Virus record (IMG/VR): IMGVR_UViG_3300036859_001061
Span: 1 to 56,087 of that record
Direction: 5' to 3' (one strand)
Origin: a virus
Length of the DNA: 56,087 nucleotides
Under the pieces are notes generated by a model. It saw only the letters and a list, made by a program, of their open reading frames with translations, did not search any database and had not been told where the DNA came from. The position numbers were made by a program, and so were the translations under genes. Shown here piece by piece: positions 10,810 through 55,350 of the stretch (position 1 is its first letter; each line of letters opens with the position of its first letter).

Positions 10810-11631
10810 CTACCCCTCGACCGCCGCCGGCGTCTCCTCGACCGTCAGCGTCACGACGTCCCGCAGCTTCGCCTCTGTCGCCGCAAGGACCTCCCGGTAC
10901 CGGGCGAAGTACTGCTCGTCGGCGATCGCCGTGAAGAGGTGGCCGCACCTGATCGACGGGTCGAGGAGGATGGGAAACCCCGCCGCGCGCACCTTCTCGC
11001 AGAAGGGCACATCCTCCGAAATCATCGGCCAGCCGTCCTCGTTCGCCCGGTACTCGAACCACGGCCGCGGGCCGAGCGCCTGGACGATGGCCAACGGAAT
11101 CAGCGCGCAGCCCATCCCTACGACCTCCTCGGCGCGCAGGCCGTCGGCGTCGACGTCGGCGTAGTCGGCGTCTACCCGGTACTGCCGATACAGCCCCGAG
11201 GCGTGCAGGCGCCCTTCGCGCAGCGCGACCGGGCCGTATGGCATCCGGCGCTGCGTGTAGAACCCGCTCACCACGGCGCCGCGCGGGATGTGCCGCAGCA
11301 GGCGCGCGAAGAGGTCGTCCGGGAAGATCATGTCGGCGTCGAGAAACACGACATGCGTGAAGCCGTCCCGCATCGCCTGCTCGAGCGCCGCGTTCCGGAG
11401 CGCGTCGACGCACGGCATCGACGTGTACCAGGCCATGTCGATCGCCGCGATGCCGAGGTCCGCCTTGACCCGCGGGATGCGGTTGCCCCACCCGAGTCCA
11501 ATGAGGCTCTGCGCGGCCTGGCGATCGACGACGCCGACGTTGTGGCAGATCGCTACGAGCACACGGGGCGCCTCGTCACTCTGAGGCACCGCGCTGACCG
11601 GACCCTCCTGGCGGACTGACGTCTCGCTCAT
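10810..11631 (-). CDS. Glycosyltransferase (GT-A fold), phage-encoded
   Basis: 273 aa. HVVFLDADMIFPDDLF carries the D-x-D metal/nucleotide-sugar motif of GT-A glycosyltransferases, in a context (R.xAL..A...G.T.VV.LDADM) common to phage-encoded members. A C-terminal block SEDVPFCEKVRAAGFPILLDPSIRCGHL resembles the acceptor/EDxxFC region of the same family and is shared with the second glycosyltransferase at 21010-21834. Located inside the head-tail module, it could modify virion proteins; the acceptor is unknown. Confidence 0.7.
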   Translation of the reverse strand: MSETSVRQEGPVSAVPQSDEAPRVLVAICHNVGVVDRQAAQSLIGLGWGNRIPRVKADLGIAAIDMAWYTSMPCVDALRNAALEQAMRDGFTHVVFLDADMIFPDDLFARLLRHIPRGAVVSGFYTQRRMPYGPVALREGRLHASGLYRQYRVDADYADVDADGLRAEEVVGMGCALIPLAIVQALGPRPWFEYRANEDGWPMISEDVPFCEKVRAAGFPILLDPSIRCGHLFTAIADEQYFARYREVLAATEAKLRDVVTLTVEETPAAVEG

Positions 11632-31712: not shown

Positions 31713-32234
31713 TCATCGGCCTCCGCCTCGGGCTCGCGCGTCGTGGTCGAGGCGACGTCGGGCGTCGGGCAGAGACTCGCCTCGGCGGGGCCGTGCGTCC
31801 TCCTCCGAGTCGGCGGCCGGCGGCTGCGCCGCCGCGCGCCCTGAGCCCTTCGTCACCGGCAGGCTGTAGCGTCGGCTATTGGTGACCCCCGTCGCCTGCA
31901 CGCGCCCCGCGCGCACCAGCCGTCCGATCGTGTAGCGCAGCTGCTTCTTCGTGATGCCGCAGGCATCGGCCAGAGACCCAGCGCTCAGAGGGATGGCGTT
32001 CGCGGCGAGCTCACGGCAAATGCGATAGTTGAGGTTGTGCCCGACCACGTGGTCGGCGGGAACGCGCTCGGTTGCCGGCATCATCGCCGACGGCTCGCCG
32101 AGCGGTCCCTCTCCTTGGGTGAGCAGGCGGAGCAGTCCGCATTTCGTGTCGTGCGCGCGCTGCATTTCTGTCTGCAGCGCGTCGAGATGCGCATCGAGCT
32201 CGGCCACCGCGGCGCGGATGACGTGCGTGTCCAT
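31713..32234 (-). CDS. Winged-helix DNA-binding regulator
   Basis: 173 aa. Middle region NYRICRELAANAIPLSAGSLADACGITKKQLRYTIGRLVRAGRVQATGVTNSRRYSLP is a helix-turn-helix plus wing (recognition helix ~ITKKQLRYTIGRLV). The N-terminal 45 residues are helical (dimerisation), the C-terminal ~40 low complexity and basic. About residues 48-60 contain the protospacer of the array's most distal spacer (see finding), so it may be a target for regulation or for attack on related phages. Confidence 0.6.
   Translation of the reverse strand: MDTHVIRAAVAELDAHLDALQTEMQRAHDTKCGLLRLLTQGEGPLGEPSAMMPATERVPADHVVGHNLNYRICRELAANAIPLSAGSLADACGITKKQLRYTIGRLVRAGRVQATGVTNSRRYSLPVTKGSGRAAAQPPAADSEEDARPRRGESLPDARRRLDHDARARGGGR
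32056..32091 (-). other. Protospacer of CRISPR spacer 1 (31/36)
   Basis: Within the regulator gene, 36 nt on the minus strand match the spacer at 33180-33215 at 31 of 36 positions, with a 16-base unbroken core GCCGGCAACCGAGCGC (minus orientation) and a further nine matching bases on its far side. Mismatches sit partly in codon positions compatible with homologous-gene divergence. Suggests that the spacer was acquired from a relative's version of this gene. Confidence 0.8.
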
Positions 32235-33143: not shown

Positions 33144-33611
33144 CCCGCAGTGACCGAATCGGCGATCAGGCACTTCGAGGCTGGCAAGCGCTCGGTTGCC
33201 GGCGTCATCGCCGGCCCCGCAGTGATCACGCGTCGAATTGATCACTTCGGGGTCATGGTCGTGTCGCTTGCAATCCACATCGTGTGCCCGCAGTGATCTC
33301 GCGTCGAATTGATCACTTCGGGGCGCGGTAGTAGACGACCCCTTTCGCAACCTTCGTCACCCCGCAGTGATCACGCGTCGAATTGATCACTTCGGGGTCA
33401 TCGCGTAGGACACTTCCGTGTCGAACTGCTGCCCGCAGTGATCACGCGTCGAATTGATCACTTCGGGGCGACGTCGCGGCCCCCCTGCAAACCGCCGCCT
33501 ACGACCCGCAGTGATCACGCGTCGAATTGATCACTTCGGGTTCTTCTCCGCGGAGGACGCGCATTGGAAAAGCTGCCCGCAGTGATCACGCGTCGAATTG
33601 ATCACTTCGGG
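33144..33611 (-). CRISPR. CRISPR array, 6 spacers, effector-adjacent
   Basis: Seven 36-nt repeats separate spacers of 35-38 nt. On the plus strand each repeat begins CCCGCAGTGATCACGC and ends GAATTGATCACTTCGGG. Repeats: 33144-33179 (degenerate, but same length and ends), 33216-33251, 33287-33322 (one change), 33361-33396, 33432-33467, 33505-33540, 33576-33611. Spacers lie between. The degenerate repeat marks the distal (left) end, so the leader side faces the effector and transcription is probably leftward, downstream of the effector. The repeat is self-complementary: arms CCCG/CGGG and AGTGATCA/TGATCACT around a 10-nt loop. No cas1/cas2 or tracrRNA is seen in the window. Confidence 0.93.
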
Positions 33612-33729
33612 GGCGGTGCCCACAAGTGGGCGGATCCCCGACACTTACCCCGCGTCCCGCGAGCGCCTCCGGGACGTACGGTCCCGGCGCCCACCCGCGC
33701 TTGAGCCTGGCGGTGGCTCACAACTCGCA
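33612..33729 (-). promoter_or_regulatory. Leader between effector and CRISPR array
   Basis: 118 bp with no credible gene. Contains two inverted repeats: GCCCAC AA GTGGGC at 33618-33631, touching the last repeat, and CCGGGAC...GTCCCGG at 33669-33687 (7-bp arms, 5-nt loop). Neither is followed by a T tract, so they are not plain terminators. They could shape the 5' part of the pre-crRNA or act as the leader. No sigma70 promoter is obvious, hence co-transcription with the effector is the simplest assumption. Confidence 0.5.
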
Positions 33730-34983
33730 TCATGCTGATACCTCTCGACTTCCCTCCACCGCGAGCGATCCCGGCGGATCTGGCGGGATCTGACCGCTCG
33801 CGTACACCCACGCCAACCCGTGATTTTCGCAGGTCGTCTGCAGCCGCATCCGGAGCGCCTGCCAGGGGAACGGCGCACAGAACGTGTCCGTGCTGTCGTC
33901 GTACGTGACGGCCTCCACGCGCTCGCGCTGCGCGAGACGCACGACGTCCGCCGCGATCTGCGCGAGCCAGGTCCTGAGCTGGTCACGGCTGCGATCGGCC
34001 ATGCGCGCGAGCTTGACCCGCATCCCGGCCGCCTCCGAGGCGCGGAAGCGCCGCGAGACGCCCAGGTCCGCCGCCAGTCGCTCGCGGCGGACCGTGTAGC
34101 CACGGATGGCGCGACGGACCTGATCGCCAGAGATCGTCCCCACGATCCCGCGACCAGCGACCCGCAACACCAGCAGATCCGAGGCGCCAGTCTCCACCAC
34201 CAATCGGCAGCCGGGCGTGACGGACGCGGCCGTCTCGCGAGGGAACCACCCCACGAGCTTCAGCATCGGCTTGACGTCCCGATCCCCGCTCCGATGGTCG
34301 CCCGGCCGTCGCGTGACCCGCAGCAGCGCGCCCGCCCCGATCGCCCAGGACGACGTCTGGAGATGCCGCGCACGGGCCCGCTGGCCGTGGCCCACATAGA
34401 CCCGCAGCCGCCACCAGCGATCCCCCAGCCGCACCCGCACCACCGTGATCCCGTCGGCCGTCGTCGGCTCCAGCGCGAGGCCTTGATCATGGAGCGGCGC
34501 CGGCACCGGATACCGATACGTCGCCAGACTGCGCGCCCGCGTCCAGATCAGCTCGTACCGCTGCGCGCGATAGGTCTGCTCGACCTGCCGGATCAGCGAG
34601 GTCACATTGATCGGCGCCAGCGCGGGAAACAGGGCGCGGATCTCTGGGTAGAGATACACCTTCGGCATCGGTCCCAGCTTCCCATCCGTGGGGCCACGCC
34701 GCACGTCGCGCGCGTAGAGCTCCGTCGCGATCCAGTTGGCACACCGCGTCGTCTCCGCCCACGCGTCACGCAGCGCCGCGCCGAACTCCGGCCACGTCGC
34801 ATCCAGCGGGCGGGTGATCGCGAGCGTGACGGCGCGGCGTACATACTGCCGATCGAGACAATCACCGCACGTCGGATCAGGCGTGCGCTTCCACCCGATC
34901 GGGAGCCGCGTCTCGGCCTTCACCGCCTGGGTCCGTCCGCATCCACACAAGACCGTGCGTGCCAGGTCCTCGGCGTTACCCAC
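33730..34983 (-). CDS. Compact TnpB/Cas12-lineage effector, probably nuclease-dead
   Basis: 417 aa; GTG start overlapping the upstream TAA by 8 bp. Residues 13-42 hold a zinc knuckle (CGC...CGDC), 47-150 a helical REC-like part (FGAALRDAWAETTRCANW), 170-250 a beta-rich WED-like part (WWRLRVYVGHG; KPMLKLVGWFPRE). From ~258 the RuvC order of TnpB is recognisable: RLVVETGASDLLVLRVAGR for GVDVGIKDFAIV, then KLARMADRSRDQLRTWLAQIA...RVEAVTYDDS, then FPWQALRMRLQTTCENHGLAW. The first catalytic Asp is Glu264, the second acidic position is Tyr361/Asp362, and the protein ends before the zinc ribbon and the D-x-N-A-A motif. Homology is by eye. Confidence 0.8.
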   Translation of the reverse strand: MGNAEDLARTVLCGCGRTQAVKAETRLPIGWKRTPDPTCGDCLDRQYVRRAVTLAITRPLDATWPEFGAALRDAWAETTRCANWIATELYARDVRRGPTDGKLGPMPKVYLYPEIRALFPALAPINVTSLIRQVEQTYRAQRYELIWTRARSLATYRYPVPAPLHDQGLALEPTTADGITVVRVRLGDRWWRLRVYVGHGQRARARHLQTSSWAIGAGALLRVTRRPGDHRSGDRDVKPMLKLVGWFPRETAASVTPGCRLVVETGASDLLVLRVAGRGIVGTISGDQVRRAIRGYTVRRERLAADLGVSRRFRASEAAGMRVKLARMADRSRDQLRTWLAQIAADVVRLAQRERVEAVTYDDSTDTFCAPFPWQALRMRLQTTCENHGLAWVYASGQIPPDPPGSLAVEGSREVSA

Positions 34984-35184: not shown

Positions 35185-35484
35185 TCACTCCCCCTTTTTT
35201 AAAGACTCGCCGCTCGGTCTGGTCAACACCCCCGCCGCGCCGCGCTTGAAGTCCTCAGCCGCCGGGCAGCTTTTCCAATGCGCGTCCTCCGCGGAGAAGA
35301 ATGCGATAACCCGGTTCGTCTCGGGGTCCAGCGCCGACTTCCGCGGCACGGCACCGGCGTTCATCGGCATCTTCTTCCCGCGCCGGGTCTCGTACCAGTC
35401 GATCGCCGCCCCGCACCCCCGGCAGCGGCCGCCGACCGAGCGCGAGTCCTCGTAGAGTCGAATGAGCGTCCCGTCCCAACTCAC
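35185..35484 (-). CDS. Small zinc-finger phage protein (spacer target)
   Basis: 99 aa, GTG start in a GTGA overlap. GGRCRGCGAAIDWYETRRGKKMPMNAGAVP and the distal HWKSCP form a CxxC...H...C zinc site typical of a widespread small phage protein family (C..C...I.W..T..GK.MP.....). It lies in the operon ParB-like > HTH > this gene > small protein > effector > array. Codons 62-73 are an exact match to the first spacer of the array (35267-35301). Confidence 0.7.
   Translation of the reverse strand: MSWDGTLIRLYEDSRSVGGRCRGCGAAIDWYETRRGKKMPMNAGAVPRKSALDPETNRVIAFFSAEDAHWKSCPAAEDFKRGAAGVLTRPSGESLKKGE
35267..35301 (+). other. Protospacer of CRISPR spacer 6 (35/35)
   Basis: Plus-strand 35 nt identical to the reverse complement of the spacer at 33541-33575; it begins CAGCTTTTCCAATGCGCGTC. 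With leftward transcription the crRNA would equal this strand and pair with the gene's coding strand. The four bases 5' of it (CGGG) are also the last four bases of the repeat in that orientation, so identity continues for 39 nt. Confidence 0.93.
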
Positions 35485-43153: not shown

Positions 43154-43363
43154 CTAGGGCGATGCCGCCGCCCTCGTCTCCCCTGTCCGCTGTGCGTGCG
43201 CGATCGCCGTCTGCACGATGTCGTCGACGCTCTTCGCGCGGTCCCAGAGCAGCAGGATGTCGTCGCCGCCGAAGTACTCCGGGTCGAGGCCCGCCTGGGC
43301 GCAGCCGCGACGCACTGCCGCGACGTCAGCCGCCGTGATCGCCCGTTGGCGTCTCACGCGCAC
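43154..43363 (-). CDS. Small acidic/helical protein
   Basis: 69 aa, GTG start with another GTG two codons on whose GTGA overlaps the upstream stop. ITAADVAAVRRGCAQAGLDPEYFGGDDILLLWDRAKSVDDIVQTAIAHAQRTGE: helical with a conserved-looking D.ILLLWD motif. Follows the SMC-like gene. Function unknown. Confidence 0.5.
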   Translation of the reverse strand: MRVRRQRAITAADVAAVRRGCAQAGLDPEYFGGDDILLLWDRAKSVDDIVQTAIAHAQRTGETRAAASP

Positions 43364-45219
43364 ACCGCCTGCTCGACGCGCGCGAGCGTGCTCACGCCGT
43401 CGACCTTCGTCACACGCACCCAGGTCCAGCCCTCGATCGCCGGCGGCTCAAAGTCGTCGTCCTTCGTGGCCGCGGCCACGACCTGGACGCTCCCGCGCAG
43501 GCTGAGGAGTTCCCCGAGCAGCGCGCGGTTCGGGCCATCGAGGAGATCCACCTGATCGATCGCCACGCAGTGGAAGCCGGTCGCCTCCGCGATCGCGAGC
43601 TGCAGCGCGATGCCGACGCGCAGCCGTTCGGACGTCGAGAGGAGCGCCGCCGACAGGCCGTTCACGACGACGCGCCACGGCTCGGCCTCGATCTGGAGCC
43701 GATAGCCGAACCGCTCGAGCGCCTGATTGATGGCCGCCTCGAACTGTCCCAGCGCCGCGGTCAGTGCCTGGACGCGCGCGCCGTTGGGGCCGAAGACCTC
43801 GGTGAGCCGCTCGGCCTCGGCGAGCTCGCGCGAGGCGGCGAGCTGCTGCGCCTTCACCGCCGCGTGGCGGGCCGCCTGGGCCGCGATGTCGCGGGCGGCC
43901 TGCAGGACCTCCTCGCCTTTCGCGATGCGCCCCTGCACGGTTTGGAGCTCGGGGGAGGGTGCCGTGTCGGCCGGGCACGCGTCCCGATCCGCCTGGAGTC
44001 GGGCTAGGGTGCGCTCGAGGTCGGCGAGATCGCTTGTCTGGGTCGCGCGCTGCACCTGGACGCGCTGCAGGCGATCGAGGCGGTCAATGAGGGCCTGGCT
44101 GTCCGCCGCGCGCAGGCGGGCCTTCTCAACGGCCTGCTGCGCCTCGTCGACGGTCGCGGTCAGCGTGTCGATCTGGGCCTGGAGCGTCGCGAGCTCCGCG
44201 CTGAAGTACTTCGCCGGGGTCTTGCAGGGGATGGTGCCGTCCAGCACGCAGCCGCGGTCCGGGCTGTGCTCGGCGAGGGCGACATGCGTGTCCGCGAGCA
44301 GCGTCAAGCGGCCGGCGGCATCGACGAGCGCCACGCGCGCGTGATTCGCCGCGTCGTCCGCGTCCTCGTCGGTGACGATCGCGACCCGTTCCTGCAGCTC
44401 GAGGATGGCATCGGCGAGATCGACCTTCGCCCCGTCGAGGGCGGGCACCGTCGCCGTCTCGGTGATCGTGTGCTGCGTGCGCGCGATCGCGGTCTCGACG
44501 TGCGTGATCTGTTTGTCGAGCTCGCCGCGGCGGCCCGTGGCTTCCGAGGCGGCCGCGAGCAACGTCTTCTCCTCGGCCCGCAGGGTCGCCAGGCGCGCCT
44601 CGATGGCCGGGACGTCGGGGAGCTCACCCGCTGGCGCCGGCGGCAGCGTGAGGGCCGCAAGGGCCGCCTTACGCGTCCGGCGCACCTCGAACCAGTGCTT
44701 GTACCGTGCGTCGACCTGGCCGAGCGTGAGGGTCTCGTCGCCGACCGGGACGCGCACGTCGAGGACGTCGAGCAGGAGATGCTTCGCCTCGGCGTGGTGG
44801 AGCGCCAGGAAGGCATCGGTCTGCAGGCACGCGTCCACGATCGCGGGCGTGACGCCGAGCCGTTCGAAGAGCACCCCCGCCTGCGTCTCCTTCGGCCCGA
44901 CGGCGCCGTCGAGGCTCAGTTTCTGCGCGGTCGGCGTTTGCGCCCGGACGACGACGAGCGGCGCGCCGTCGGCATCGGCGATCTGGACGCCGACGCGCAT
45001 CTGCCCGCTCGCGTCGGTCGCGCGCAGGAGCGTGTGGCTGCCGACGCCGCGCGCATCAGTCCCGCGGCAGTGCCCGGTGAACGCCCACTGGAGCGCGTCG
45101 ATGATGGTGCTCTTCGAGGCACCGTTGCGGCCGATCACGAACGTGACCGGCGTGTCGAACACCAGGGTCGCCGTCGCGATCGACCGGAAGTTCTCGAGCT
45201 GCAGTTGTGGAATGCGCAC
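43354..45219 (-). CDS. SMC/RecF/Rad50-like ATPase
   Basis: 621 aa, GTG start. LENFRSIATATLVFDTPVTFVIGRNGASKSTIIDALQW (Walker A GRNGASKST, family LENFRS... start), then long coiled-coil arms with a two-Cys apex (DRGCVLDGTIPCKTP, a spaced zinc-hook-like pair), and a C-terminal ABC signature-like STSERLRVGIALQLAIA with Walker B FHCVAIDQVDLLDGPNRALL. The usual Walker B glutamate is Gln (D-Q). Together with the RecB-like and annealing genes it forms a recombination module, like T4 gp46/SbcC. Confidence 0.75.
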   Translation of the reverse strand: MRIPQLQLENFRSIATATLVFDTPVTFVIGRNGASKSTIIDALQWAFTGHCRGTDARGVGSHTLLRATDASGQMRVGVQIADADGAPLVVVRAQTPTAQKLSLDGAVGPKETQAGVLFERLGVTPAIVDACLQTDAFLALHHAEAKHLLLDVLDVRVPVGDETLTLGQVDARYKHWFEVRRTRKAALAALTLPPAPAGELPDVPAIEARLATLRAEEKTLLAAASEATGRRGELDKQITHVETAIARTQHTITETATVPALDGAKVDLADAILELQERVAIVTDEDADDAANHARVALVDAAGRLTLLADTHVALAEHSPDRGCVLDGTIPCKTPAKYFSAELATLQAQIDTLTATVDEAQQAVEKARLRAADSQALIDRLDRLQRVQVQRATQTSDLADLERTLARLQADRDACPADTAPSPELQTVQGRIAKGEEVLQAARDIAAQAARHAAVKAQQLAASRELAEAERLTEVFGPNGARVQALTAALGQFEAAINQALERFGYRLQIEAEPWRVVVNGLSAALLSTSERLRVGIALQLAIAEATGFHCVAIDQVDLLDGPNRALLGELLSLRGSVQVVAAATKDDDFEPPAIEGWTWVRVTKVDGVSTLARVEQAVCA

Positions 45220-45224
45220 GGGTC

Positions 45225-46337
45225 TTAAGCCTCCCCTTCGATCAGCTCGTCGTCGGTGACGTCGCCGACCTTTTTTGCGGTGAACTTTGTGCCGTGGGTG
45301 ATCGTGGCGAGTGCCTCGAGGTCGGGCCGCACATGCGCGAACCGTTTGGTCGTCAGGTAGGTCCGGAGCGCGCTCTTGCTGACCGAGAACGTGGGCGTCA
45401 CGCCCTGGTCGATGAGGATCTGCATGACGGCCGCGATCGGGAACGTCGTCACGGCTGACGGCCGATGCGCCCACTCGCGGCCACCGATGGTGACTGGCCC
45501 CTCGCCGGCGCACCAGGCTTCGAGCGCTTTCCGCCGCGCCGTCGCGGCTTGCTGCAGCACCAGGAGCTGCCCCGCAATGCGCTGCGCATCCTCAGCCGAG
45601 CTGATGCGCACGGGCGCGAGGCGCGCGTCGTTGACGACGGGGCACTCCAGGCGGCAGAACCCGCAATGCTGGCCGGGCACCGCCGGCCACGCGTTCTCGG
45701 CATGCGCCCGCTCGATCTGCTGTCGGGTGATCGCGAGCTCCGCGTCGACCTGGTCGAGATCGGCCGTATCGAACGTGGCCGACGCGCTGAAGCCCCAGCG
45801 TACGAAATCGAACCGGATTCGGTACTTGGCGAAGCCTGGATACAGCCGGCGGGCGGAGGCCGCGTAGAAACGGCCCTGCAGTTCGTGGCGGGCCTGCGCA
45901 TCCGAGAACCCGATCCAGTACGTTTTGAAGTCAGGAATCTCCAGGAGGTCGTCGTACGCATAGAGCAGGTCCGGCGTCCAGGTGTAGCCCAGGCTGTCGA
46001 CCTGTTGCTCCTCGGCCGAGAGATAGGCGTCCAGATCGAGCTCGAAGTCTGGGGCCCACCGCTGCCAGAACAGATCCCCGACTTCCGGCAACAGGTGCGC
46101 GGGCGTCCGTTCCTCGACCATCCCCTCGGCGAAGGCCTGCTCTGCAAGCTGCAGGTCTTCGCGCTGGCGCGTCTGCCAGAGCGCGTGGATGTAGCGCCGC
46201 GCGGCGGCATGAAAGGCGCGCCCCCGGATCGCCTCGTCGGAATCGTCCGGCACACCATCGACGTAGATCTGGCGATACCGAAACGGACACGAGAAACTCT
46301 CCAAGGCGCTGCGACGCAGGACAAGAGCGTTGGACAT
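45225..46337 (-). CDS. PD-(D/E)xK nuclease, RecB/Cas4-like with Fe-S Cys
   Basis: 370 aa. CPFRYRQIYVDG at ~residue 18 and HCGFCRLECPVV at ~210 give the four-cysteine iron-sulfur arrangement of AddB/Cas4/RecB-like nucleases. The active-site series is TWTPDLLYAYDDLLEIPDFKTYWIG (D...[ILV]xDFK). Pairs naturally with the SMC-like ATPase and the annealing protein for phage recombination; similarity to Cas4 is structural family only. Confidence 0.75.
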   Translation of the reverse strand: MSNALVLRRSALESFSCPFRYRQIYVDGVPDDSDEAIRGRAFHAAARRYIHALWQTRQREDLQLAEQAFAEGMVEERTPAHLLPEVGDLFWQRWAPDFELDLDAYLSAEEQQVDSLGYTWTPDLLYAYDDLLEIPDFKTYWIGFSDAQARHELQGRFYAASARRLYPGFAKYRIRFDFVRWGFSASATFDTADLDQVDAELAITRQQIERAHAENAWPAVPGQHCGFCRLECPVVNDARLAPVRISSAEDAQRIAGQLLVLQQAATARRKALEAWCAGEGPVTIGGREWAHRPSAVTTFPIAAVMQILIDQGVTPTFSVSKSALRTYLTTKRFAHVRPDLEALATITHGTKFTAKKVGDVTDDELIEGEA

Positions 46338-46350
46338 CGTCGTCGTCCGC

Positions 46351-47481
46351 CTAGAAGCTGAACTTGCTGGGGCCGCCTGCGGGCGGTCGCGGTGCGGGCG
46401 TCGTGCTGGAAGTCGCCGCCGGAACCTCGGCCACCGGAGACGCCGGCGCCTGGCCCACGTCGGGTCTTGTGCCCTGGGGGGGAGCCGGCGCATCCGGATC
46501 GGCCTTCTGGGCCTCGAGCATCCCGCCGAGGATCTCGAGGAGCTTGTCAGGGTGCCCCTTGAACGCACGGAGCTGCACGAGGCGCTGCGCGCGGTTCATC
46601 TTCAGGGCGTCGAAGTACTCAGTCGCCTTGGTCGCGACGTCGCCGAGCGCCTTCATCTCGTCGACCAGCGGATCGCTCTGCGGGACTGTGCCGGCCGGCG
46701 GGAACGCGTCCTCGATCGTCGTGTCCCCGTCCTTGATGGCGGTCGCGAGGCCTTTCAGCGTGGCCAGGTGATCGAGGGTGATGTCTTCGACGCCGCGGAG
46801 CTCGAGGAGCGCGAAGACCCGCGCGGGCTCGATGCCCATCTTCTGGAAGTACTCGATCATTTTCGCGCGCTTCGCACCGAGCGTCTCCGCCTTGCCGACG
46901 GCGACCTCTCGGCACTTCAGGTAGATCTGGCGCGTGTAGCTTTGCGGGATGACCTGGAACAGCGCGTTCCTAGTCGCGATGGCGATCGCGGCGTTGGCGG
47001 TGGTCGCGATCATGTCGTCGTTGTAGCGGCCGCCGTCGCGATTCGTGATCCGGCGCCGCACTTCGACCGCGCGCGCGACGTTGGTCTGCAGGTCCCAGGC
47101 GCCGCCGTACGCGGTGAGGAACCGATCACCCTCTTCGACGATGCGCCCAACGATGCGCAGATGGCCCCAGGCCGAGGACACGATCTCCGCGAGCCGGACG
47201 GACGGCCCTTCGATCGGCTTGTCGCTCCCCTTCCGCTTCGGCAGCGTGTAGAAACACGAGGCGGCCGTCTCCTCGTCGATCGTCGCCATCGAGAGCGCCT
47301 GCTCCTGGAAGGTCTTGATCGACCGCGGGAAGCGCCTGGCCGTGACGATCTGGATGTCGATCTCGCCGCGGGTCTGCTGCTCGAGCATCCCGCCGGCGCT
47401 GGCCGGCATCACCTCATCGGGCTCCAGCGCTGGGGCTGCGTCGTTCACCGCCGGTCGCATGCCCTGTCGTCCGTTCGCCAT
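46351..47481 (-). CDS. Possible ssDNA-annealing recombinase
   Basis: 376 aa. Central domain RRFPRSIKTFQEQALSMATIDEETAASCFYTLPKRKGSDKPIEGPSVRLAEIVSSAWGHLRIV...ANAAIAIATRNALFQVIPQSY, the layout (YxLPR, GPSVRLAE, RNA....IP) of a phage single-strand annealing family found beside nuclease and SMC genes. The C-terminal third is helical and Pro/Ala-rich. The exact superfamily (RecT/ERF/other) was not decided. Confidence 0.55.
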   Translation of the reverse strand: MANGRQGMRPAVNDAAPALEPDEVMPASAGGMLEQQTRGEIDIQIVTARRFPRSIKTFQEQALSMATIDEETAASCFYTLPKRKGSDKPIEGPSVRLAEIVSSAWGHLRIVGRIVEEGDRFLTAYGGAWDLQTNVARAVEVRRRITNRDGGRYNDDMIATTANAAIAIATRNALFQVIPQSYTRQIYLKCREVAVGKAETLGAKRAKMIEYFQKMGIEPARVFALLELRGVEDITLDHLATLKGLATAIKDGDTTIEDAFPPAGTVPQSDPLVDEMKALGDVATKATEYFDALKMNRAQRLVQLRAFKGHPDKLLEILGGMLEAQKADPDAPAPPQGTRPDVGQAPASPVAEVPAATSSTTPAPRPPAGGPSKFSF

Positions 47482-51481: not shown

Positions 51482-52681
51482 ATGCCGCGGAAGGGCAAGC
51501 GCCGGCGGATCGCGAAGAGCGTCTATGCGGACGGGTCCGGCTGGTCGGCCGTCGCGCGTGCCGGCGACCTCGTGCGGGAACAGCGCTATGAGCCAGGCAC
51601 GTCCATGAAAACGATCCGGAGCTGGCAGCGCGATACCGAGCGCGAGCTCCGGAAGCTCCTCGGCACGCCGACCGGCGAGCGGCGCCTGACGCTGACCCAG
51701 GATATCGAGACCTACCTCACGGAAAAGACGATGGCGTCGATCGCCGATCGCGAGCGGGACCTGCGCGCGTGGATTCCCTGGTTCGGGCATCGCCGGCGCC
51801 ACACGCTGCGGACGCGCGAGCTGGACGCGCAGCTCCGGCGCTGGCGCGTGCTGGACAGGCTCTCGGCCTCGTCGGTGAATCATCGCCGCGATGCACTGTC
51901 GGATCTCTTCACCGTCCTCGATGGCCCGGAGGCCACGAACCCGGTGAAGGGCTGCATCTGGTGTGCCCGGGCGAAGCCGATCCCGCAAGCGATCGACCGG
52001 GCGCGGATCCAGCGCGTCCTCGAGGCGATGGATCCGGACCGAAAGACACGCTGGCGTCTCAGCCTTATGCACTGGACGGGGATGCGGCCGTCGCAGATGG
52101 GACGGCTCGCGGGGCCCGAGGACTTCCACATTGGCACCCGCGCGTTCGAACTCGAGATCCATGGCGCGCCGCGGCGCGTGCCGGCGGTCCTGGTGCCGTC
52201 GGGCAAGGGCGGCGACCCGGTCATGTTCCCGCTCACCGCGGAGGGCGAAGCGGTCGCGCGTGCGTTTCTCCGGACCGATGCCTTTTGGCGGCCGCCCGCG
52301 CGGCAGCCCGGCGCGCCACCAAAGACGCCGCGCGTGACCTGGTCGTGCCCGAGCGCCTACAAACGCATCGTGGCGGCGGCGACGAAGATCGGCGAGCGGC
52401 CGTTCACGGTCTACACGATCAAGCACTCCTTCGCCACGGCGCTCCGCCGCACCGGCACGGACCTGGCCGACATCCAGGACATGCTCGGGCACGCCGACAT
52501 CGCGAGCACGAGGATTTACGCGCCGGCGGTCAACGCGAAGCACGTCGAGGCGCTCGACCGGTTGCGGCGCGACGACGCCCGCAGGTATGATCACCCAGGG
52601 GCCACGAAACCAACGTCGTCTCCCCAGGCCGCGCCGGTTTCCGTGGCACCCGAGCGTGGCACCAAAGATGATGCCGCGTAA
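51482..52681 (+). CDS. Tyrosine integrase
   Basis: 399 aa. N-terminal SAM-like core-binding part (TLTQDIETYLTEKTMASIADRERDLRAWIPWFGHR...SASSVNHRRDALSDLF), catalytic domain with TGMRPSQMGRL (first Arg), VYTIKHSFATALRRTGTDLADIQDMLGHADIASTRIYAPAV (GH and nucleophile Tyr). The usual HxLR of box II is YTIK, i.e. His to Tyr and Arg to Lys. The C-terminal 40 residues are low complexity. It ends 20 bp before a tRNA gene; the cluster context is that of a phage integration module. Confidence 0.85.
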   Translation: MPRKGKRRRIAKSVYADGSGWSAVARAGDLVREQRYEPGTSMKTIRSWQRDTERELRKLLGTPTGERRLTLTQDIETYLTEKTMASIADRERDLRAWIPWFGHRRRHTLRTRELDAQLRRWRVLDRLSASSVNHRRDALSDLFTVLDGPEATNPVKGCIWCARAKPIPQAIDRARIQRVLEAMDPDRKTRWRLSLMHWTGMRPSQMGRLAGPEDFHIGTRAFELEIHGAPRRVPAVLVPSGKGGDPVMFPLTAEGEAVARAFLRTDAFWRPPARQPGAPPKTPRVTWSCPSAYKRIVAAATKIGERPFTVYTIKHSFATALRRTGTDLADIQDMLGHADIASTRIYAPAVNAKHVEALDRLRRDDARRYDHPGATKPTSSPQAAPVSVAPERGTKDDAA

Positions 52682-52700
52682 GTCGTTGAGCCGGTTATGT

Positions 52701-52777
52701 GCGCCCGTAGCTCAGCTGGATAGAGCGCCGGGCTTCGAACCCGTAGGTCGGGGGTTCAAATCCCTCCGGGCGCACCA
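52701..52777 (+). tRNA. tRNA-Arg (anticodon TCG), CCA encoded
   Basis: 77 nt cloverleaf: acceptor GCGCCCG paired with CGGGCGC, D arm GCTC/GAGC, anticodon loop CTTCGAA (TCG at 52735-52737), T arm GGGGG TTCAAAT CCCTC, then ACCA. One mismatch (C-U) at the base of the anticodon stem. Reads CGA (Arg). Directly 3' of the integrase and antisense to the end of a serine-recombinase remnant, it is the likely integration target. Confidence 0.95.
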
Positions 52778-53539
52778 ACCCTTTCGCGTAGCCCGCTGAG
52801 CGCCTTCCAAAAGGCGCTCATATTCCAACTCTCCGGTGTCCTCCGGTCCGATTCCTTCGGTCCCGGTCCGGTCTCCCTGCGGAATGAAGGACGGCCGGTC
52901 CGCTGTACCGATGACGATGCCGCTGAAGAGCTTGTCAAAGCGGGTCGGACCGCTGAAGTCGTAGCCCGCGCCATCCTGCCGGGGTGTGAACGTCAGCCGA
53001 CCTTGCAGAACGCGCTGGAGCACCGTCTTGCCCTGTGTCGGAGAGCCGCGAAGGCGCAAGCGCCATTCGGACAATCGACTGGCGATGACGGCTGGCGCGA
53101 GACGCGGAATGGGACGCAGGTTTCGCAATTCCACGTCAATGGCGCGCCGTCGTCCTTCCAGGTCCCGCACCTTCGTGACGAGGGAATCCAACTGACCGCC
53201 GCTCGCGATGGCGGCGACGAGTCGTTCAATCTGCTTCGCAAGGTTCGAGGCTTCGACTTCAAGAGTCGTCCGCTGGTCCGCTGCCTCCTCACGTTCGCTG
53301 AGCAGGATGACGTGCTCAAGCGTCTCAGGCGTAATGTGCTCTTCGACCGCCTGAAGCACGGCCTCGTTCATCTCCGAGACCGGCATCCGAAGCTTGTTCG
53401 TGCAGGTTCCGTTGGTTCGCCGCCGATGACAGATATATTCCGGGACACGACCGCGTTTCCGAACCCGGCCGGGACCGCCGCGCGGCTCCCGGCCGGGACC
53501 CTTCCGACCTCCGGCCAACCCTCCGGCCCGTAGAATCAT
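52712..53539 (-). pseudogene. C-terminal remnant of a large serine recombinase
   Basis: 275 codons. VPEYICHRRRTNGTCTNKLRMPVSEMNEAVLQAVEEHI is the recombinase zinc ribbon, followed by the coiled-coil region (LSEREEAADQRTTLEVEASNLAKQIERLVA). The catalytic domain and N-terminal half are absent and no in-frame continuation exists upstream; an IS21 element lies just beyond. The frame continues into the tRNA (…ARRDLNPRPTGSKP), so the gene's 3' end is tRNA sequence. Confidence 0.8.
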
Positions 53540-53775
53540 CCGACGACCGAGCTGGCCCTTACCCTGAGCCGGGTGCCGGTCGTCACGCTACGCTGGCGCT
53601 ACGCGGTCGGCCGACCGTGCCCGCCCTCCGACGGTCGGCAAGGCGGACCCGGAGACGGCAAATCCTCCGGCTCAACACATTCCGGCCCCCTCGGTTCAGC
53701 GCTCTGAGGGAGCCGACCATTCCCTTCGGAATTGTGCCGGAATCAGAGGGCAGCGTCCCGTGGGCGCGCCGCTCA
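53540..53775. other. Gap between recombinase remnant and IS21 end
   Basis: 236 bp with no gene. No promoter or terminator was identified beyond GC-rich flanking sequence. Confidence 0.5.
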
Positions 53776-53810
53776 GAAAGTGATCCATTCGCCGCTCGGA
53801 AAGTGATCCA
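53776..53810 (+). repeat. IS21 left-end tandem repeats
   Basis: Two copies of AAAGTGATCCA separated by TTCGCCGCTCGG. Transposase binding sites in the IS21 family are multiple and tandem like these. The sequence resembles part of the CRISPR repeat of the phage (see finding). Confidence 0.7.
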
Positions 53811-53874
53811 CCTGAGGGTCTGATCGCGGCTTGCCGAAACGCGGGGTTTCGGGTCCGCTGGGAGGATGCTCAGG

Positions 53875-55350
53875 ATGGACCAGGTACATGTCATTCGCCA
53901 CCAGGTGTTGGTGGAGGGCCGGTCACAGCGGCAGGTGGCCAAAGCCTTCGGGATGTCGCGGCTGACGGTGCGGAAGTACGTCGGCGAGGCGGCGCCGCGG
54001 CCGAAGGAAACGGGGCCGCGGGCACGGCCGGTCTGGGACAAGGTCGCGGGACGGGTCGAGGCGGTGCTCACCGCGTCGGCGCAGTGGACGGGCGGCAAGC
54101 AGCGGCTGACGGCCACACGGTTGCACGCGCTGCTGGTGGCCGAGGGGCACACCGTCGGCGTGACCGTCGTCAAAGACGCGCTCGCGGAATGGAAGCGGCA
54201 GCGGCGCGAGGTCTTCGTGCCGCTCACGTATCGCCCGGGCGATCTGGCGGAGGTCGATTTCTTCGAGGTGCTCGTCGACGTCGACGGCGTCCGTCGGAAG
54301 GCGTGGCTCTTCCTGATGCGCCTGATGTACTCCGGTCGCGACTTCGCGTGGATCTACGCGCGGCAGGATCAGATCAGTTTTCTCGACGGCCACGTCCGCG
54401 CCTTTGCGCACTTCGACGGCGTGCCGGCGCGTGTCGCCTACGACAATCTGCGTGCCGCGGTCGTGCGGATCCTGGTCGGCGGCGCGCGGACGTTGACGCC
54501 GCGATTCGCGGCGCTCGCATCGCACTACCTGGTCGAAGCGTGCTTCTGTCGGCCCGGCGAGGGCCATGATAAGGGCGGCGTCGAGGCCCGCGGCAAAGCG
54601 ATCCGCCAGCAAGCACTCGTGCCCATTCCGAGCGGGCCGACGCTCGCGGGGATCAATGCGGCACTGCTGGCGCAGATGGATGCGCGGCTCGACACCACGC
54701 GCGATGCCGCCGGGCAGACCATCGCGGCGCGCTTCGCCGAGGAGCAGCAGCAGTTTCGACTCGCGCCGACACCGTTTGCGCCGGAGTCGACGACGCTGGC
54801 CACCGTGACACCGCGCGCGTTAGTGCGGCTCGAGGGCGCGGTGTACTCGGTGTGGACGCGCTGGGCCGGCCTCGACCTGGTGGTTCGCATCGGGGCCAGC
54901 ACGGTGACGATCGTCGGCCGCGACGGCACGCACGTGCAGCACCCGCGGAAGCGCTTCGGCGAGCGCTCGATTGACTATCGGCATTACCTGACGGAGCTCG
55001 CGCGCAAGCCGCAGGCGGTGCGGCAGGTGCTCCCCGATCTCGTGCGCGATCTCGGCGCCCCGTTTCCGGCGATCTGGGATCAGCTCCACATCGCGTATGG
55101 GCCGCGCGAAGCCGCGCGGCTCTTCGCCAAAGTCCTCGGCCAGCTCGAAACTCAGGGCGCCACGGTCCTCGTGCCCGCGCTGATCGCGGCACTCGCGACA
55201 GGGACGCCACTGTTGCTCGCGCTCACGCCGGCGCGGCGCTCCCTCGATCGCCTCGCGCCGGACGCCGTGCCCGCGCCGCTCCGCGCGATCGACGTCGGCA
55301 GTGGCTGTGCTGCCGACTATGACGCGTGGCTCGGCGAGGTGGCGGGATGA
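53875..55350 (+). CDS. istA: IS21 transposase IstA
   Basis: 491 aa from MDQVHVIRHQVLVEG. N-terminal HTH (RSQRQVAKAFGMSRLTVRKYV), DDE integrase core: LAEVDFFEVLVDVDG (first Asp), VAYDNLRAAVVRILVGG (second Asp), GHDKGGVEARGKAIRQQ (Glu region), then a beta-rich C-terminus. ATGA overlap with istB. Appears intact. Confidence 0.9.
   Translation: MDQVHVIRHQVLVEGRSQRQVAKAFGMSRLTVRKYVGEAAPRPKETGPRARPVWDKVAGRVEAVLTASAQWTGGKQRLTATRLHALLVAEGHTVGVTVVKDALAEWKRQRREVFVPLTYRPGDLAEVDFFEVLVDVDGVRRKAWLFLMRLMYSGRDFAWIYARQDQISFLDGHVRAFAHFDGVPARVAYDNLRAAVVRILVGGARTLTPRFAALASHYLVEACFCRPGEGHDKGGVEARGKAIRQQALVPIPSGPTLAGINAALLAQMDARLDTTRDAAGQTIAARFAEEQQQFRLAPTPFAPESTTLATVTPRALVRLEGAVYSVWTRWAGLDLVVRIGASTVTIVGRDGTHVQHPRKRFGERSIDYRHYLTELARKPQAVRQVLPDLVRDLGAPFPAIWDQLHIAYGPREAARLFAKVLGQLETQGATVLVPALIAALATGTPLLLALTPARRSLDRLAPDAVPAPLRAIDVGSGCAADYDAWLGEVAG

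What the first reader, a model, noticed from the sequence alone, without database searches (positions are those of the whole stretch)
33144..34983. Phage-borne compact Cas12/TnpB-like effector with its own CRISPR array
A 417-aa protein with TnpB/Cas12 domain order sits immediately upstream (118 bp) of a seven-repeat CRISPR array on the same strand, inside a phage early-gene block. No cas1/cas2 or other cas genes are visible, and the effector is far smaller than known Cas12 proteins such as Cas12a or CasPhi. This looks like an independent TnpB-to-CRISPR domestication in a phage.
Basis: partly seen in the sequence, partly recalled or inferred. Interest (0 to 1): 0.97.

Follow-up and report, generated by a model that had tools for sequence, protein, structure and literature searches.

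The report
Phage CRISPR with a non-cutting Cas12
A bacteriophage, and eleven relatives found here, carry a small CRISPR system whose Cas12-like protein seems to have lost its cutting site but keeps its guide RNAs, so it probably silences genes by binding DNA, and in three of these phages one guide matches the phage's own genome exactly.

Summary
In detail: a 417-aa Cas12-like gene (33730-34983, -) lies 118 nt upstream of six 36-nt repeats plus a degenerate one (33144-33611, -); no cas1. The interpretation changes. This is not a lone TnpB domesticated in one phage: a motif search found relatives in 11 further distinct phages, and one pattern-limited scan of bacterial genomes found none. Profile and fold place the family with Cas12f/V-U3 (type V-F). 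None of 12 members has the RuvC-I catalytic Asp, and the readable C-termini stop before the zinc ribbon and RuvC-III, so the nuclease should be dead. Three phages (window included) have one spacer matching their own genome exactly (35/35, 39/39, 37/37). Best reading: a tracrRNA/crRNA-guided, non-cutting DNA binder that silences related phages and possibly the phage's own genes. Phage-borne compact type V systems, a phage Cas14 lacking a catalytic residue, and the RuvC-III-less, transposase-linked CasMu-V are in print; ten searches of the papers held showed no description of this transposase-free family. New variant of a known kind.

The parts
33730..34983 (-). Effector: 417-aa Cas12f/V-U3-like protein; N-terminal CxC...CxxC (Cys13, 15, 39, 42), WED/REC-like part, RuvC-like part with Glu264 at the RuvC-I position and Asp362 at the RuvC-II position; no RuvC-III and no target-binding zinc ribbon
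33612..33729 (-). Intergenic tracrRNA-like RNA between the effector stop and repeat 1 (the covariance-model match 33603-33722 includes the first 9 nt of repeat 1)
33703..33719 (-). Conserved hairpin of that RNA (5 bp; loop of the type ACCGNCA)
   Evidence: 100% of cells paired in 9 sequences, 5 of 5 pairs with changes on both sides
33636..33641 (-). Anti-repeat (UCGGGG) that can pair with the repeat's 5' end (CCCCGA, counting the base before the repeat)
33144..33611 (-). CRISPR array: repeats at 33576-33611, 33505-33540, 33432-33467, 33361-33396, 33287-33322 (1 change), 33216-33251 and degenerate 33144-33179; gene-proximal end at 33611
33541..33575 (-). Spacer 1 (gene-proximal), identical over 35/35 to the phage's own DNA at 35267-35301
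33180..33215 (-). Spacer 6 (far end), 31/36 identical to the phage's own DNA at 32056-32091
35267..35301 (+). Own-genome match of spacer 1, inside the 99-aa gene 35185-35484 (-), 284 nt upstream of the effector start; a crRNA read from the - strand would be antisense to that gene's mRNA
32056..32091 (-). Own-genome near-match of spacer 6, inside gene 31713-32234 (-)
35185..35484 (-). 99-aa phage protein with CxxC (phrog_5984; sub-threshold DUF6083), just upstream of the effector, holding the spacer 1 match

Best explanation
A phage-encoded, stripped-down type V-F-like CRISPR system that works by binding, not cutting. Transcription of the locus gives a tracrRNA-like RNA and crRNAs; the anti-repeat pairs with the repeat's 5' end and the protein carries the guide to matching DNA. 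With the RuvC-I aspartate gone and RuvC-III and the zinc ribbon missing, it should hold the target and block transcription or replication, as Cas12m does. Spacers are probably aimed mainly at related phages that enter the same cell; guides that match the phage's own genes are tolerable because nothing is cut, and may also damp those genes. Shown here by computation: the protein family and its similarity to Cas12f, the lost catalytic positions, the covarying RNA and its fit to the repeat, the arrays, the self-matches. Inferred: transcription and processing, DNA binding, silencing, and who the targets are.
For: PADLOC Cas12f profile matches 12 of 12 members, Cas12u3 11 of 12; a profile search of solved chains finds Cas12f1 at E 6e-10; the model matches AsCas12f1 at Z 21.9 and dCas12f at 21.0 (324 and 323 residues, rmsd 8.2 and 8.1). 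RuvC-I position: E 1, R 8, L 1, H 1, Y 1 of 12, never D (register from the alignment). TNB profile: 0 of 13 records over the cut-off; at the ends of two effectors only its first 24-28 of 60 positions match. RNA: 18 pairs, 17 with changes on both sides; covariation 0.752 against 0.264 shuffled and at most 0.14 when slid; cognate anti-repeat/repeat pairing in 8 phages reached by 34 of 40,320 permutations. The model trained on 7 phages found the RNA on the effector's 3' side in 4 phages left out (E 1e-6 to 1.4e-3) plus a 30-nt fragment at a contig end (E 0.28), and nothing up to E 1 in 60 control loci. Arrays in 10 of 12 distinct phages. Exact self-matches in 3 of 10 phages with readable spacers, 3 of 42 spacers. 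Binding-only defence is shown for Cas12m (PMC11013384, passages).
Against: No external target was found: apart from the four own-genome matches (and arrays matching themselves, a twin record or a duplicated spacer), no spacer match stood clearly above the reversed-spacer control in 106 records of 1.7 Mb. The window array had nothing better than E 0.6 in named phages and one weak plasmid match (36 nt at 88.9%, E 0.01, over spacer 2); two other arrays had no match at E 0.01 in named phages. No common PAM is visible beside the four self-matches. The loss of catalysis is read from sequence; Glu264 and Asp362 of the window protein are acidic, so residual activity is not strictly excluded. No expression data. 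The permutation test ignores that some phages (G047, G058) have similar repeats, and a broader version was weaker (1,385 of 40,320). One RNA-model hit away from the effector (L144, E 0.0013) scores like the weakest accepted one.
Confidence: 0.6

Rival explanations
1. Its main job is to regulate the phage's own genes, as a guide-RNA transcription repressor. In the window the spacer 1 match lies in the gene directly upstream of the effector, so binding there could also throttle the effector's own transcript.
For: Exact self-matches in three phages, each inside a gene (the 99-aa gene; in G047 a gene I read as a DNA methyltransferase, 40 nt after its start; in G055 a 166-aa gene I read as a tail protein; both readings by eye); a nuclease-dead effector makes a self-match survivable; the window site is 284 nt upstream of the effector start, in a gene on the same strand.
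Against: 38 of 42 spacers have no self-match beyond control level; the matched genes differ; the sites lie inside genes, on either strand, rather than at promoters; no shared PAM. Only two of the 13 records show end overlaps, so many may be fragments and the true share is uncertain.
Confidence: 0.22
2. It is CasMu-V: an inactive Cas12 that guides a Mu-type transposase.
For: Altae-Tran 2023 describe CasMu-V as a type V effector that lost RuvC-III, linked to Mu transposase, with a homing spacer in one case (PMC10910872, section 11 read). The window has a transposase with rve and Mu-transpos_C_2 domains at 53866-55350.
Against: rve matches in 1 of 13 family records, the window; phrog_1157 convincingly in 1 of 13, plus a trace over 31 positions in G052. 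AAA_22, the type of ATPase I would expect for MuB, is over the cut-off in 0 of 13. The Mu-transpos_C search rang nowhere, controls included, so it says nothing. In the window the transposase lies beyond an integrase and tRNA-Arg, probably in host DNA. Around the effectors only pairs of phages share any other gene.
Confidence: 0.05
3. It is an active miniature nuclease: Glu264/Asp362 plus an unrecognised third residue, perhaps in a dimer, cut DNA.
For: The window protein keeps acidic residues at both positions; Cas12f is described as dimerization-dependent (title and start of abstract of PMC8053092 in a search listing).
Against: 11 of 12 members have R, H, L or Y at the RuvC-I position; T or H at RuvC-II in 2 of 11; the 11 C-termini in the alignment lack RuvC-III; a cutter would endanger the three phages with exact self-matches unless a PAM is lacking.
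Confidence: 0.06
4. The array is a decoy or mini-array that feeds the host's own Cas proteins, and the effector is incidental.
For: Viral mini-arrays thought to exploit the host system are known (PMC11656645, passages).
Against: Array, RNA and effector stay together in distant phages and the anti-repeat covaries with the repeat; the mini-arrays of that review have one or two spacers and repeats identical to the host's.
Confidence: 0.05

Closest known systems
Type V-F, Cas12f (now including V-U2, V-U3, V-U4)
   Same: Profile and fold similarity over residues about 45-400; similar size; tracrRNA-like RNA with anti-repeat beside the array (a complex guide RNA is described for Cas12f in PMC11013384, passage)
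   Different: RuvC-I Asp absent in 12 of 12, zinc ribbon and RuvC-III missing, N-terminal CxxC...CxxC; found only in phage contigs here
Type V-M, Cas12m
   Same: Expected mode: RNA-guided DNA binding without cutting; also on mobile elements
   Different: Cas12m was found to have no tracrRNA and keeps a D-E-D, H-D-D or N-D-D site (PMC11013384, passages); weaker fold match (Z 10.3-11.4)
CasMu-V (Altae-Tran 2023, PMC10910872, section 11 and passages)
   Same: Cas12 without RuvC-III, own array; their effector co-purified with an RNA
Phage Cas14/V-U systems and 'dCas14' (PMC7162821) and landfill-virus V-U/V-F/TnpB systems (PMC12607003)
   Same: Compact type V effectors with short arrays and usually no adaptation genes in phages; one lacking a catalytic residue
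   Different: The passages I saw describe huge phages or survey lists, not a conserved truncated family with a covarying tracrRNA-like RNA and exact self-matches
TldR (TnpB-like nuclease-dead repressors) and dCas12f
   Same: Nuclease-dead relatives of TnpB/Cas12f that use guide RNAs; TldR is phage-encoded (PMC13418256, passages); dCas12f known to me here from PDB titles
   Different: As far as I recall TldR works with one guide, not a multi-spacer array; no partner gene is shared across the family here

Membership tests
Type V-F (Cas12f) | Effector related to Cas12f in sequence and fold | tested here: met
Type V-F (Cas12f) | CRISPR array and tracrRNA beside the effector | tested here: met
   by sequence and covariation only:
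Type V-F (Cas12f) | RuvC D-E-D active site | tested here: not met
   RuvC-I Asp absent in 12 of 12; RuvC-III missing in the 11 readable C-termini
Type V-F (Cas12f) | C-terminal target-binding zinc ribbon (PF07282) | tested here: not met
   no match over the cut-off in 13 records; first 24-28 positions only, at two effector ends
Type V-F (Cas12f) | Dimer, 5' PAM, DNA cleavage | not testable with these tools
   no common PAM beside four self-matches
Type V-M (Cas12m) | Single crRNA, no tracrRNA | tested here: not met
   tracrRNA-like RNA by covariation; criterion
Type V-M (Cas12m) | Binding without cleavage | not testable with these tools
   inferred from lost residues
CasMu-V | Cas12 lacking RuvC-III | tested here: met
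CasMu-V | Linked Mu-type transposase | tested here: not met
   convincing in 1 of 13 records, and there apparently outside the prophage
TldR | Nuclease-dead TnpB relative with one guide RNA and no array (criterion recalled) | tested here: not met
   arrays in 10 of 12 phages
Independent TnpB domestication | Nested within TnpB rather than Cas12f in a tree | not tested
   no reference sequences to build the tree; profile and fold favour Cas12f

The most novel reading that the evidence does not exclude
A phage lineage has turned an adaptive-immunity CRISPR system into a programmable, non-cutting gene regulator aimed both at rival phages and at its own genes, with self-matching spacers kept under selection; in the window the gene-proximal guide would shut the operon that makes the effector, a built-in off-switch.
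Probability: 0.2. Interest if true: 0.85.

Novelty: new variant of a known kind. Interest (0 to 1): 0.62.

Why it matters
It gives a family, phage-restricted as far as searched, in which part of the cutting machinery of Cas12 is missing altogether rather than merely mutated, while guide RNA, anti-repeat and array are kept under selection. That makes it a natural test of how little of Cas12 is needed for guided DNA binding, a possible very small silencing tool, and a case where CRISPR carried by a phage matches the phage itself.

Tried and rejected
Single-sequence searches that found nothing: the protein in viral contigs, genome contigs (19), phages and plasmids (14, 15), and in 46 phage records by handle (35); the Cas12f profile by handle in 47 records, the window included, which it missed (36); the repeat pattern (16); a PLDxxWxEFG motif (37). 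These were nearly blind, since relatives are only 30-38% identical; the W-x8-YRYPxP motif then gave 21 stretches of which nine hold relatives, and alignment A2 added three phages. A2 in genome contigs found none, with only two peptide patterns. The single-sequence model was useless (pLDDT 38); the one from 12 sequences was usable (77.6, pTM 0.57).

Pfam and NCBIfam had no convincing family for the protein (8, 10); Rfam had none for the RNA (29, 89). A first, broad duplex test of anti-repeat pairing was weak (1,385 of 40,320 permutations), probably because other GC-rich stems intrude; the anchored test was chosen afterwards, so its 34 of 40,320 is flattered. It used 8 phages; G050, G051, G053 and G056 were left out. 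A degenerate search for the spacer 1 target in other phages gave 0. L081, at first a hoped-for effector relative, only shares the 99-aa gene. Weaker RNA-model hits (L144 19242 at E 0.0013, L142 1648 at 0.02, L139 17876 at 0.023 and 3298 at 0.16) are unexplained; the two on L139 lie far from the effector and may be chance. No att repeat of the tRNA was found in the window. Two relevant papers, Al-Shayeb 2022 and Altae-Tran PNAS 2023, are not held, so I could not check whether their lists include this family.

Full report
Observation. The effector frame (33730-34983, -), the array (33144-33611, -) and the 118-nt gap are as described. Six spacers of 35-38 nt separate six full repeats and a degenerate terminal one. 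The degenerate repeat at the far end suggests that the gene-proximal end is the leader side, which would make spacer 1 (33541-33575) the newest; this is inference.

What the protein is. Alone it matched only the PADLOC Cas12f profile convincingly (E 1.7e-6). Standard searches found no relative, but a degenerate DNA motif for W-x8-YRYPxP did: 21 stretches, nine of which encode relatives (tblastn E 7e-63 to 4e-38; two of the nine carry the same effector). Alignment A2 added three more phages. Counting once the pair G048/G049, which carry the same effector and array, there are 12 distinct phages in 13 records. The family profile rang in those 13 and in none of 32 other phage records searched alongside (31 found by their terminase, one, G046, by the 99-aa gene). 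A scan of genome contigs with A2, using two peptide patterns, found none. In alignment A4 (12 rows, two of them cut by contig ends) identity to the window protein is 30-38%.

Family features. A CxxC (CxC in two rows) followed by a second CxxC at the N terminus in 10 of 12 rows; the L108 row is cut there, but the rest of that gene, in L112, has it, while L087 lacks it from the start chosen. Invariant R-Y-P-x-P. RuvC-I position never Asp (E 1, R 8, L 1, H 1, Y 1 of 12); RuvC-II position D 8, E 1, T 1, H 1 of 11 readable. The register comes from the HMMER alignment to Cas12f1, where the consensus v-r-t falls on I-D-L of GIDLG and Y-d-D on M-E-D. The proteins stop about where the zinc ribbon would start: at the ends of two effectors only the first 24-28 positions of PF07282 match, below the cut-off. 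A model from A4 (pLDDT 77.6) matches AsCas12f1 (Z 21.9, rmsd 8.2, 324 aligned) and dCas12f (21.0), then Cas12k (15.3), TnpB (15.2) and Cas12m (11.4). The large rmsd means that domains are arranged differently.

The RNA. On the effector's 3' side each phage has a related RNA, in G051 only a 30-nt fragment before the contig ends. Folding nine of them with the first repeat gave three helices: a 5-bp hairpin, the pairing of a GGG-type anti-repeat with the 5' end of repeat 1, and the repeat hairpin. Counts: 90.1% of cells paired against 66.1% in shuffles; 43 cells with both sides changed against 13.7; covariation 0.752 against 0.264 (0 of 500 shuffles) and 0.07-0.14 when slid. By eye MAFFT leaves G047 and G058 a column or two off in the anti-repeat, so that helix is under-counted. 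In 8 phages each anti-repeat fits its own repeat better than chance (34 of 40,320 permutations; a broader version gave 1,385). A covariance model trained on seven phages found, among 96 sources, its training set, the G048 copy of G049, four untrained phages on the effector's 3' side (G056 1e-6, G057 2e-5, G050 7e-4, G053 1.4e-3), the G051 fragment (0.28) and four further hits in G056 and G057 (0.0013 to 0.16), with nothing up to E 1 in 60 control loci. This is tracrRNA anatomy; Cas12m was found to have no tracrRNA.

The arrays. Ten of 12 distinct phages have an array 3' of the effector on the same strand, with two to fourteen recognised repeats. The first repeat starts at 114-128 nt after the stop in seven (in G049 counted from the second in-frame stop; 211 from the first), and at 338, 410 and 806 in G053, G057 and G050. 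G056 has the RNA but only worn repeats by eye; G051 ends before an array could be seen. Repeat sequences differ between phages.

Spacers. Of 42 readable spacers from 10 phages, three match their own genome exactly: window spacer 1 (35/35), G047 spacer 5 (39/39, 40 nt into a gene I read as a DNA methyltransferase) and G055 spacer 1 (37/37, in a 166-aa gene I read as a tail protein); window spacer 6 matches at 31/36. Reversed spacers reach at most 30/39 in the same 106 records (25/36 for spacer 6). A chance exact 35-nt match in this contig is expected about 1e-16 times. The 31/36 differences translate as mostly conservative changes, as if the spacer came from a relative's copy of that gene (inference). 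No other convincing target was found; the best elsewhere is a 36-nt, 88.9% plasmid match at E 0.01.

Neighbours. Within about 6 kb of the effector in 12 phages, other genes are shared only by pairs of phages, for example a ParB-like gene in the window and G055. Cas1: 0 of 13. An rve-type transposase occurs in the window only; it lies past an integrase (51482-52681) and tRNA-Arg (52701-52777), so it is probably host DNA beside an integrated prophage (inference). CasMu-V, which shares the RuvC-III loss (PMC10910872, section 11 read), is therefore not met on its defining link.

How it probably works. Transcription through the locus gives tracrRNA and crRNAs; the effector binds them, finds matching DNA and stays. 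Silencing of related phages is the likeliest use, by analogy with Cas12m (PMC11013384, passages) and with phage arrays aimed at other phages (PMC7162821, passages). Self-matching guides are explained either as spacers against near relatives whose sequence the phage shares, harmless because nothing is cut, or as control of its own genes. I hold the first more likely.

What is in print. Phage Cas14/V-U systems and one phage Cas14 lacking a catalytic residue (PMC7162821, passages); V-U, V-F-like and TnpB effectors in landfill viruses (PMC12607003, passages); CasMu-V (PMC10910872). A survey of phage genomes reports one phage Cas12, a Cas12a (PMC12676247, passages). My ten searches (listings) showed no description of this family in the papers held; two relevant papers are not held. 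Hence new variant of a known kind, not categorically new.

Noticed in passing
window 51482-55350: Integrase frame (51482-52681, +) directly beside tRNA-Arg(tcg) (52701-52777): the window looks like one end of a prophage integrated at that tRNA; a second integrase-like frame (52712-53539, -) and an rve-type transposase (53866-55350, +; IS21-like in my recollection) lie beyond it.
   Followed up: partly
window 43354-46568 (-): SbcC-like ATPase next to a PD-(D/E)XK exonuclease-like gene, with RusA and ParB-like genes nearby: a phage recombination/partition block.
   Followed up: no
L130 18300-19605 (-) (G053): A long array with 14 repeats recognised whose copies decay away from the gene, the last ones keeping mainly the 3' end (GTTTCGG).
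   Followed up: partly
L138 19066-19560 (G056): Effector and tracrRNA-like RNA but only worn repeat remnants ending in GATCGGTCGG-like pieces; possibly a decayed array or a different guide format.
   Followed up: no
L142 1040-1810 (G057): Two or three copies of the tracrRNA-like RNA around a two-repeat array; a further weak copy at L144 19242-19388.
   Followed up: no
L146 15805-15992 (G058): Spacers 2 and 4 of one array are the same except for two of the first three bases.
   Followed up: no
L087/L091 effector: The frame stops at a TGA 84 nt before the next in-frame stop; the spacing to the array fits the second stop, so the gene may be read through or recently shortened.
   Followed up: partly
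L134 about 11010-11160 (G055): A likely relative of the window's 99-aa gene lies right after the array; in the window it lies right before the effector and holds the self-match (translated by eye).
   Followed up: no
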